NCBI GenBank assembly: GCA_015490895.1
Contig: WFWY01000075.1
Span: forward strand, 1 to 51,637
From: Thiotrichaceae bacterium
GTDB lineage: Bacteria; Pseudomonadota; Gammaproteobacteria; Thiotrichales; Thiotrichaceae
Direction: 5' to 3'
Length of the DNA stretch: 51,637 bases
Shown: positions 2,390 to 47,985 of the stretch, piece after piece
How the letters are laid out: each line of letters starts with the position of its first letter
Numbering within the stretch: position 1 is the first letter of the stretch
Program-made: the position numbers and the translations under genes
Notes under the pieces: generated by a model
The model's input: the letters and a program-made list of their open reading frames with translations, nothing else
Told to the model about the DNA's origin: nothing
The model's database searches: none

Positions 2390-2874
2390 GTGAAAAGGTA
2401 TCAAAAAAGTTATTTTTTCTGCAGTCAGAAAGCAGGATTCCTGGCAGCTTAATGTAGACTGGAGTTATACACAGCAAAGTCCTGGGGTATGTAGCTAATC
2501 GACTCAGCAATGTTGATTTGACTCAGGATATTATACAAGAAGCCATGATTGGGTTTGTCGCATCGGCTCAGATTTATGAAGTAGCTCCCTGGAAGAGTTG
2601 ATTTTACAAGATCCTGTATCACAGAATGATTGATTTTTTGAGGAAGGAGCAATGGAAGAAAAAACTCTTTGAAACACAAAAACTATCCAATATGATGCCC
2701 TACTGTGATTGCTCTGATGATGTGTTGGAGACACTGAACTGTTCACCGAAAGAAAACAGCTCATCACCAGATTTGATGTAATTATCTGGCAACTATTGAA
2801 ATGGCCGAGCAGCTTGAAAGCATTTTCTTATCTATAAAATGATACTTTTCAGGTGGCTTTACGAAGTTACTTAA
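2390..2874 (+). pseudogene. Decayed ECF-type RNA polymerase sigma factor
   Basis: No intact frame exists, but three frames together read as an ECF sigma factor. A GTG at 2390 follows AAGGAG. A first shift lies near 2420. From 2491 the frame gives region 2 features: DLTQDIIQEA, then an in-frame TGA at 2599, then FYKILYHRMIDFLRKEQ, which matches the classic region 2 core (LYRIAxNxxIDxLRR). Further on, another frame gives region 4: IEMAEQLESIFLSIK, a stop, then YFSGGFTKLLKK (compare EIAExLGIS..VKSRLxRxxxKLRK). At least two frameshifts and two nonsense codons make it nonfunctional. The coding signal ends where a short inverted-repeat element begins. It may once have controlled the divergent multicopper oxidase or the downstream cytochrome gene; that is inference. 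Confidence 0.72.
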
Positions 2875-3037
2875 GAAGGCTCTGATTAAGTCCGGTCGAA
2901 TTTTCTGTGAGATGAAATTCGTCAGTTTTTTGATAGAAACGTTAGCAACAGTCATTCTATTGGTCACTTTTATAGCGAAAAAATGGCGATATTTCAGCCT
3001 CAGGAAAACGATTGGGACTTGATCAGAGTCTCCTTAA
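2871..3037 (+). mobile_element. MITE-like element, type A, copy 1 (167 bp)
   Basis: A 167-bp sequence bounded by TTAA on both sides, with inverted ends (left GGCTCTGATTAAGTC, right GACTTGATCAGAGTCTCC). The interior matches three other copies in the window (30315, 46169, 47819), including the block ATGGCGATATTTCAGCC. No transposase is encoded. The right end lies 51 bp before the start of the five-heme cytochrome gene, so it forms part of that gene's upstream region. Confidence 0.88.
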
Positions 3038-21817: not shown

Positions 21818-21899
21818 GAGGCTCCTTAAGTCTGAGTGGAATTTCTCGAACAATTCTAGCTTCGAGAAACCGCTCACGACTTATTCATAGTCTCCTTAA
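21814..21899 (-). mobile_element. MITE-like element, type B, internally deleted copy (86 bp)
   Basis: TTAA flanks both sides. Read on the minus strand it begins GGAGACTATGAATAAGTCGT, continues GAGCGGTTTCTCGAAGCTAG and ends near ATTTCCACTCAGACTTAAGG. It aligns with the 123-bp copy at 34841, missing the middle (the ATCGCCCATTTTAAACAAAA block). Confidence 0.8.
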
Positions 21900-30314: not shown

Positions 30315-30481
30315 TTAAGGAGACTCTGATCAAGTCCCAGTCGTTTTCCTGAGGCTGAAATATCGCCATTTTTTCGCTATAAAAGTGATCAATAGAATGA
30401 CTATTGCTAACTTTTCTATCAAAAAACTGACGAATTTCATCTCACAGGAAATTCGACCGGACTTAATCAGAGCCTCCTTAA
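30315..30481 (-). mobile_element. MITE-like element, type A, copy 2 (167 bp)
   Basis: Same length and sequence plan as the 2871 copy, in the opposite orientation, with TTAA at both edges (30315-30318 and 30478-30481). The right-hand TTAA contains the stop codon of the yciI-like gene. An internal frame of about 32 codons (NRMTIANFSIKKLTNFISQ) is shared with copies 1 and 4. It separates ribE from everything upstream. Confidence 0.92.
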
Positions 30482-34530: not shown

Positions 34531-34818
34531 TTACTTGTGTGCAATGGGCTTGTCGGTAAACAGGTAATCCTTGAGCTCCTTGTTGAAGGCAGGGTCACGT
34601 CTCCTGATCCATTCCAGCACCATCGCAGCATGTTCTTTTTCTTCGTCACGGTTGTGCGCCAGGATGGCTTTTAATTCGGTATCTTTACAGGCATCGACAC
34701 GCTGGTTGTACCAGTCAACAGCTTCCAGCTCCTCCATGAGTGAGGTGATGGCCTTGTGCATATCGCGGGTTTCCTCAGAGAGTTCTTCCACGGGCTCGTG
34801 GTAACCTTCATTTGACAT
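34531..34818 (-). CDS. EncFtn-type ferritin-like protein lacking an encapsulin tag
   Basis: 95 residues, very close to the encapsulated ferritin (EncFtn) of Rhodospirillum rubrum. SLMEELEAVDWYNQRVDA and ILAHNRDEEKEHAAMVLEW hold the ferroxidase ligands: Glu30, Glu60 and His63 correspond to Glu32, Glu62 and His65 of that protein, and Glu29/Glu32/Trp36 are also kept. EncFtn oxidises Fe(II) in a decamer and normally sits in an encapsulin shell through a C-terminal tag. Here the protein ends LFTDKPIAHK, without the usual hydrophobic tag, and no encapsulin gene is nearby. AAGGAG precedes the start. Confidence 0.9.
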   Translation of the reverse strand: MSNEGYHEPVEELSEETRDMHKAITSLMEELEAVDWYNQRVDACKDTELKAILAHNRDEEKEHAAMVLEWIRRRDPAFNKELKDYLFTDKPIAHK

Positions 34819-34840
34819 GGGGTGCTCCTTAGATGGTGTA

Positions 34841-34963
34841 TTAAGGGGACTCTGAATAAGTCGTGAGCGGTTTTCTCGAAGCTAGAATCGCCCATTTTAA
34901 ACAAAAACTGAACAATTCTATCATTCGAGAAATTCCATTCAGACTTAATCAGAGGCTCCTTAA
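34841..34963 (+). mobile_element. MITE-like element, type B, full copy (123 bp)
   Basis: TTAA at both edges; ends GGGACTCTGAATAAGTCGTG and, from the other strand, GGAGCCTCTGATTAAGTCTG. Internal inverted parts TTCTCGAAGCTAGAAT and ATTCTATCATTCGAGAAA pair with each other. It begins 22 bp upstream of the EncFtn-like start and so replaces or supplies that gene's promoter; its other side is 9 bp from the cca stop. Confidence 0.88.
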
Positions 34964-47793: not shown

Positions 47794-47823
47794 CTTAAGA
47801 TCTTTTCATGCAAAGATCTTAAG
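47794..47823. repeat. Perfect inverted repeat at the edge of type A copy 4
   Basis: Arms CTTAAGATCTTT and AAAGATCTTAAG (12 bp each) around a 6-nt spacer TCATGC. The second arm ends inside the TTAAG that begins the element, so the element edge and the palindrome overlap. Confidence 0.85.
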
Positions 47824-47985
47824 GAGACTTTGATCAAGTCCCAATCGTTTTCCTGAGGCTGAAATATCGCCATTTTTTCGCTATAAAAGTGACCAATAGA
47901 ATGACTATTGCTAACTTTTCTATCAAGAAACTGACGAATTTCATCTCACAGGAAATTCGACCAGACTTAATCAGAGTCTCCTTAA
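47819..47985 (-). mobile_element. MITE-like element, type A, copy 4 (167 bp)
   Basis: TTAA at both edges, same orientation and nearly the same sequence as copy 2 (30315). The internal frame VTNRMTIANFSIKKLTNFIS continues through the element. Identical length to copies 1 and 2 suggests recent spread. Confidence 0.92.

What the first reader, a model, noticed from the sequence alone, without database searches (positions are those of the whole stretch)
34531..34818. EncFtn-like ferritin without encapsulin or targeting tag
All EncFtn ferroxidase ligands are conserved, yet the C-terminus ends LFTDKPIAHK with no shell-targeting peptide and no encapsulin gene is near. It may be a free-standing decameric ferroxidase, or its shell may be encoded elsewhere.
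Basis: partly seen in the sequence, partly recalled or inferred. Interest (0 to 1): 0.62.

Follow-up and report, generated by a model that had tools for sequence, protein, structure and literature searches.

The report
Shell-free EncFtn-type ferritin (s-FLP)
This is an ordinary gammaproteobacterial copy of a small iron-oxidising protein whose close relatives live inside encapsulin shells; it belongs to an already described shell-less branch, which in many other genomes sits in a peroxide-defence operon and not beside a shell.

Summary
The gene at 34531-34818 (-) encodes a 95-aa EncFtn-like protein with every ferroxidase, entry and exit ligand, no targeting peptide, and no encapsulin in the 95%-complete genome.

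The kind is already described. N. europaea NE0167 (PDB 3K6C, 82-84% identical, also 95 aa, ending LFTNKPIAHE) was released in 2009. The group was named 'Non-EncFtn' in 2016 and 's-FLP' in 2024.

I tested the open question whether such proteins use a shell encoded elsewhere. In 370 gammaproteobacterial genomes, all 21 with an encapsulin carry an EncFtn beside it (20 tagged, 1 fused to a truncated shell). Tag-less EncFtn occurs in 91 genomes, 85 without any encapsulin, and is independent of shells (p = 0.61). No tagged protein lacked a shell. The LFTxxPI end, listed in 2024 as a putative tag, also precedes the real tag in tagged proteins, so it is part of the fold.

Tag-less genes often sit between an Fe-S oxidoreductase and DUF3501 in the aerobic rubrerythrin operon (25 of 91 loci, 0 of 22 tagged). 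In this genome that operon is on another contig.

Best reading: a cytoplasmic, shell-free ferroxidase ring linked to peroxide and iron stress. New member of a known kind.

The parts
34531..34818 (-). EncFtn-like (s-FLP / Non-EncFtn) gene, 95 aa, no targeting peptide
   Evidence: PF22277 2.6e-45; TIGR04535 139 bits; PDB 3K6C 1.4e-49 over the full length; AlphaFold model has helices 15-43, 47-74, 81-86 and its best PDB match is 3k6c
34630..34734 (-). codons 29-63, which hold E29, E30, E32, Y37, H55, E59, E60, E62, H63: ferroxidase, entry and exit site ligands
   Evidence: alignment to R. rubrum Rru_A0973; roles from PMC5012862
34531..34563 (-). C-terminal codons LFTDKPIAHK plus stop; no cargo-loading peptide
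34825..34830 (-). Shine-Dalgarno AAGGAG, 6 nt before the ATG
   Evidence: read directly

Best explanation
The gene encodes a short EncFtn (s-FLP) that works in the cytoplasm without an encapsulin shell. Two-helix protomers pair face to face to make a di-iron ferroxidase centre (E30, E60, H63, Y37 from both subunits) and assemble into a ring, probably a decamer as in NE0167. The ring oxidises Fe(II) with O2 or H2O2, and without a shell it cannot hold a mineral core. It therefore most likely acts in iron and peroxide detoxification, alongside the aerobic-type rubrerythrin module (rubrerythrin, RFO Fe-S oxidoreductase, DUF3501), and not in bulk iron storage. Shown here: sequence, ligands, fold relationship, no tag, no shell, independence from shells across genomes, operon linkage of tag-less relatives. 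Inferred: decamer, catalysis, link to peroxide stress.
For: Full-length 82-84% identity to N. europaea NE0167, crystallised as ten chains. Ferroxidase ligands invariant. No PF04454 in the genome. Among 370 class genomes all 21 shells have an adjacent EncFtn: 20 with a tag, 1 fused in frame to half a shell; 85 genomes have tag-less EncFtn and no shell; none has tagged EncFtn without a shell. Tag-less and shell are independent, p=0.61. No encapsulin ORF in any tag-less locus, including 80 GTDB loci with a median of 20 kb read. Tag-less genes sit on the same strand as rubrerythrin, RFO or DUF3501 in 25 of 91 class loci against 0 of 22 tagged loci, with median gaps of 26 and 23 bp. Tag-less EncFtn and DUF3501 co-occur, 66 of 91 against 102 of 279, odds ratio 4.6, p=3e-9. 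This genome has the rubrerythrin, RFO and DUF3501 cluster on contig 55. EncFtn without a shell oxidises but does not store iron (PMC11202242). The rubrerythrin module is tied to peroxide defence (PMC5114695) and clusters with OxyR in Sideroxydans (PMC7852563).
Against: No biochemistry on any s-FLP was found in the held papers. The assembly lacks about 5% of the genome. In this window the gene stands alone between cca and glyA, so the rubrerythrin link is from relatives and from presence elsewhere in the genome. The co-occurrence test does not correct for shared ancestry. 25 of 91 tag-less genomes have no DUF3501 at all.
Confidence: 0.8

Rival explanations
1. It is encapsulin cargo: its shell lies in the unassembled ~5% of the genome, or the C-terminal LFTDKPIAHK is an unrecognised cargo-loading peptide, as the 2024 review listed as putative.
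For: The assembly is 95.2% complete in 171 contigs. PMC11202242 Table 2 lists LFTD(E/N)KPIAHE as a putative, uncharacterised targeting peptide.
Against: Seven single-contig genomes carry tag-less EncFtn and no PF04454. Tag-less and shell are independent. In 5 of the 6 genomes with both, the shell has its own tagged paralogue beside it; in the sixth (G175) a fused one. YLFTxxPI is shared by tagged proteins ahead of their linker and tag, so it is part of the fold. Tag-less C-termini do not fit the targeting-peptide consensus (0 of 188).
Confidence: 0.05
2. The protein is a relic: once shell cargo, it lost its tag and shell and is drifting towards loss of function.
For: Three class genomes hold broken or partial copies (G352 with two in-frame stops, G002, G025).
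Against: Complete ligand set, 86-92% identity to copies from several classes of Pseudomonadota, a good Shine-Dalgarno, and tight operon placement in relatives. The tree gives tagged forms nested among tag-less ones, though with weak support.
Confidence: 0.05
3. The ring acts mainly as a partner of rubrerythrin, such as an iron supplier or electron and peroxide partner, and not as a ferroxidase of bulk Fe(II).
For: Operon position between RFO and DUF3501 in relatives; Cys44 is in 100 of 109 tag-less proteins but only 6 of 23 tagged ones.
Against: No direct evidence; here and in many genomes the gene is unlinked to the module.
Confidence: 0.1

Closest known systems
Nitrosomonas europaea NE0167 (PDB 3K6C; 's-FLP', UniProt Q82XT5)
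   Same: 95 aa, 82-84% identity over the full length, same ligands, same tag-less C-terminus (LFTNKPIAHE)
   Different: W36 here is L in NE0167; no other difference of note
Encapsulated ferritin EncFtn of R. rubrum (Rru_A0973, PDB 5DA5) and H. ochraceum (5N5F)
   Same: fold, ferroxidase centre, entry and exit residues
   Different: they carry a disordered linker and an SLGIGSLK-type tag (PMC11202242, Table 2) and pair with an encapsulin; this has neither
'Non-EncFtn' group of He et al. 2016 (PMC5012862)
   Same: EncFtn relatives lacking the encapsulin sequence
   Different: nothing that could be tested; the member list was not in the text held
Aerobic-type rubrerythrin / RFO / DUF3501 gene cluster (Cardenas et al. 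2016, PMC5114695)
   Same: tag-less relatives sit inside this cluster in 25 of 91 class loci; this genome has the cluster on contig 55
   Different: the window's gene is not in the cluster; no paper found in the held library names EncFtn as a cluster member

Membership tests
EncFtn-like family (PF22277) | profile match over the curated cut-off | tested here: met
   152.6 bits against 27
EncFtn-like family (PF22277) | ferroxidase ligands E32, Y39, E62, H65 (Rru numbering) | tested here: met
   E30, Y37, E60, H63
EncFtn-like family (PF22277) | two-helix half-ferritin protomer | tested here: met
   AlphaFold model, mean pLDDT 83.2, best PDB match 3k6c; the relative helix placement in the monomer model is loose (rmsd 5-6 A)
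EncFtn-like family (PF22277) | decameric ring | not testable with these tools
   inferred from 3K6C, ten chains, and PMC11202242
Encapsulated EncFtn (FLP-TP) | C-terminal targeting peptide | tested here: not met
   ends at residue 95; no consensus match
Encapsulated EncFtn (FLP-TP) | Family 1 encapsulin gene, usually adjacent | tested here: not met
   no PF04454 in the genome
s-FLP / Non-EncFtn | EncFtn core ending about residue 95, no targeting peptide | tested here: met
Rubrerythrin / RFO / DUF3501 cluster | gene lies in the cluster | tested here: not met
   the cluster is on contig 55, the EncFtn gene on contig 75

The most novel reading that the evidence does not exclude
Tag-less EncFtn is a fourth component of the aerobic rubrerythrin / RFO / DUF3501 peroxide-defence module: a shell-free ferroxidase ring that handles the iron side of peroxide stress, with the encapsulated form a later specialisation that gained a tag and a shell.
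Probability: 0.45. Interest if true: 0.55.

Novelty: new member of a known kind. Interest (0 to 1): 0.33.

Why it matters
A 2024 review left open whether the short EncFtn proteins are encapsulated at all and listed their C-terminus as a putative shell tag. The genome-wide count here argues that they are not encapsulated. It also gives a concrete functional lead: the rubrerythrin, RFO and DUF3501 operon. A shell-less EncFtn poses a testable question: what does a ferroxidase ring do with Fe(III) it cannot store?

Tried and rejected
Shell in the genome: PF04454 search negative with working controls. Family 2 shell PF19307: negative, but no control genome responded, so that search proves nothing. 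C-terminus as a cryptic tag: rejected as unlikely. Own gene neighbourhood as a clue: cca and glyA flank the gene only in this genome and are not shared with relatives' loci. Tree of tagged against tag-less: 90 columns, few supported branches, minimum 5 changes, so direction of change is not settled. The promoter and terminator scan gave nothing convincing for this gene.

Full report
WHAT IS THERE. The ORF at 34531-34818 (-) is 95 codons, with an ATG start and AAGGAG 6 nt upstream. It matches EncFtn-like PF22277 at 2.6e-45 and TIGR04535 above its cut-off. Every residue that the R. rubrum EncFtn paper assigns to the ferroxidase centre, entry site and exit site is present: E30, Y37, E60, H63; E29, E32; H55, E59, E62. 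The first six are invariant in 109 tag-less and 23 tagged relatives. The chain stops at LFTDKPIAHK. The AlphaFold model has two long helices and a short third, and its best PDB match is 3k6c, then R. rubrum and H. ochraceum EncFtn. The monomer's helices are placed loosely relative to the crystals (rmsd 5-6 A), so the sequence match carries more weight than the model.

NOT NEW IN KIND. The best database match is N. europaea NE0167, PDB 3K6C, 95 aa, aligned end to end at 1.4e-49 and ending LFTNKPIAHE; identity is 82% to 84%. The 2016 eLife paper already separates a 'Non-EncFtn' group lacking the encapsulin sequence (PMC5012862). [quoted passage not shown] Closely related tag-less copies are very common in Pseudomonadota: the 80 best GTDB loci, from Gamma-, Beta-, Alpha- and Zetaproteobacteria by their record titles, are 84-92% identical and none carries a tag.

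IS THERE A SHELL? None in this genome: PF04454 gives nothing in 2.78 Mb at 95.2% completeness, while the control genomes respond. To test the question in general I searched the same 370 gammaproteobacterial genomes (at least 90% complete) for EncFtn and for encapsulin, then fetched and read every near-full-length EncFtn gene. Encapsulin occurs in 21 genomes. Each has an EncFtn beside it: 20 with a tag (one an unusual ending, FTVGKP, in G230, which I assigned by eye) and one, in G175, fused in frame to the C-terminal half of a shell. Tag-less EncFtn occurs in 91 genomes: 85 without a shell and 6 with one, the tag-less gene unlinked to the shell. No genome had a tagged EncFtn without a shell. 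Presence of the tag-less form does not depend on a shell (6 of 21 against 85 of 349, Fisher p=0.61). Seven of the shell-less genomes are single contigs (G017, G093, G105, G115, G119, G285, G359), so assembly gaps do not explain the result. No tag-less locus held contains an encapsulin ORF.

IS THE C-TERMINUS A HIDDEN TAG? The residues L86, F87 and I92 are also strongly conserved in tagged proteins, where they precede a linker and the true tag. They are therefore part of the common fold. Of 188 tag-less chains none fits the published consensus [LF]x[VI]xx[LI] (searched with M also allowed last) after residue 85; 17 of 21 tagged ones do. Nearly all tag-less chains end at residue 94-105, tagged ones at 114-134.

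WHAT DOES IT WORK WITH? Clustering the genes around tag-less loci gave one recurrent neighbourhood: rubrerythrin (PF02915), a CCG-domain Fe-S oxidoreductase (PF02754) and DUF3501 (PF12007). This is the aerobic-type rubrerythrin cluster of Cardenas et al. (PMC5114695), whose genes cluster with OxyR in Sideroxydans (PMC7852563). Tag-less EncFtn is next to at least one of these genes, always on the same strand, in 25 of 91 class loci from 19 family codes, against 0 of 22 tagged loci (family codes). The usual place is between the Fe-S oxidoreductase and DUF3501, median gaps 26 and 23 bp. Flanks read were only 1.5-2.5 kb, so 25 is a lower bound. In four of the six genomes that hold both forms (G012, G175, G218, G298), the tag-less copy is in this operon while the other copy is beside the shell. 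Across the 370 genomes tag-less EncFtn and DUF3501 co-occur (66 of 91 against 102 of 279, p=3e-9); this count ignores shared ancestry. Searches of the held papers found none that places EncFtn in this cluster, but most subscription journals are not held.

IN THIS GENOME the cluster exists on contig 55 (rubrerythrin, Fe-S oxidoreductase and DUF3501; the last two nearly abut, with no EncFtn between them). The EncFtn gene is alone on the window's contig between cca and glyA, with a MITE-like repeat at 34841-34963 starting 22 bp before its start codon.

MECHANISM. By homology, subunits pair to form a di-iron centre and the pairs close into a ring. EncFtn without a shell oxidises Fe(II) but does not store mineral (PMC11202242). 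A shell-free ring thus suits detoxification of Fe(II) and peroxide better than storage, which agrees with the rubrerythrin link. Ring formation, oxidation and the link itself are inferred.

VERDICT. Observation confirmed; the free-standing reading supported; the shell-elsewhere reading unlikely. The protein is a new member of a described class. The counts against encapsulation and the operon linkage are the useful additions.

Noticed in passing
window 34841-34963; 2871-3037; 30315-30481; 47819-47985; partial copies near 21878, 32616, 46169, 11855: MITE-like repeats with terminal inverted repeats TTAAGGAGACTCTGATCAAGTC: a 167-bp type (three full copies) and a 123-bp type, one of which lies just upstream of the EncFtn gene. 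12 matches to the end sequence against 0 expected.
   Followed up: partly
L130 (G175:C227): EncFtn fused in frame to only the C-terminal half of an encapsulin: a deletion or a misassembly. The same genome keeps a tag-less EncFtn in the rubrerythrin operon.
   Followed up: partly
L143 (G340) and L173 (G064), same family as the window's genome: Tag-less EncFtn with a 23-27 residue Lys/Ala/Pro-rich tail, no targeting-peptide consensus, and no encapsulin in the genome. Purpose of the tail unknown.
   Followed up: no
alignment, residue 44: Cys44 is in 100 of 109 tag-less EncFtn but 6 of 23 tagged ones; a possible redox or metal role not explored.
   Followed up: no
L217-L220 (G429, G409, G474, G573): A divergent tag-less EncFtn (41-43% identical) elsewhere in the phylum, with H55 and E62 replaced by N and K; two of these genomes (G409, G429) have an unlinked encapsulin.
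   Followed up: no
G352, G002, G025 (L198-L200): Partial or stop-containing EncFtn copies in genomes of 1.2-1.9 Mb, probably decaying genes.
   Followed up: no
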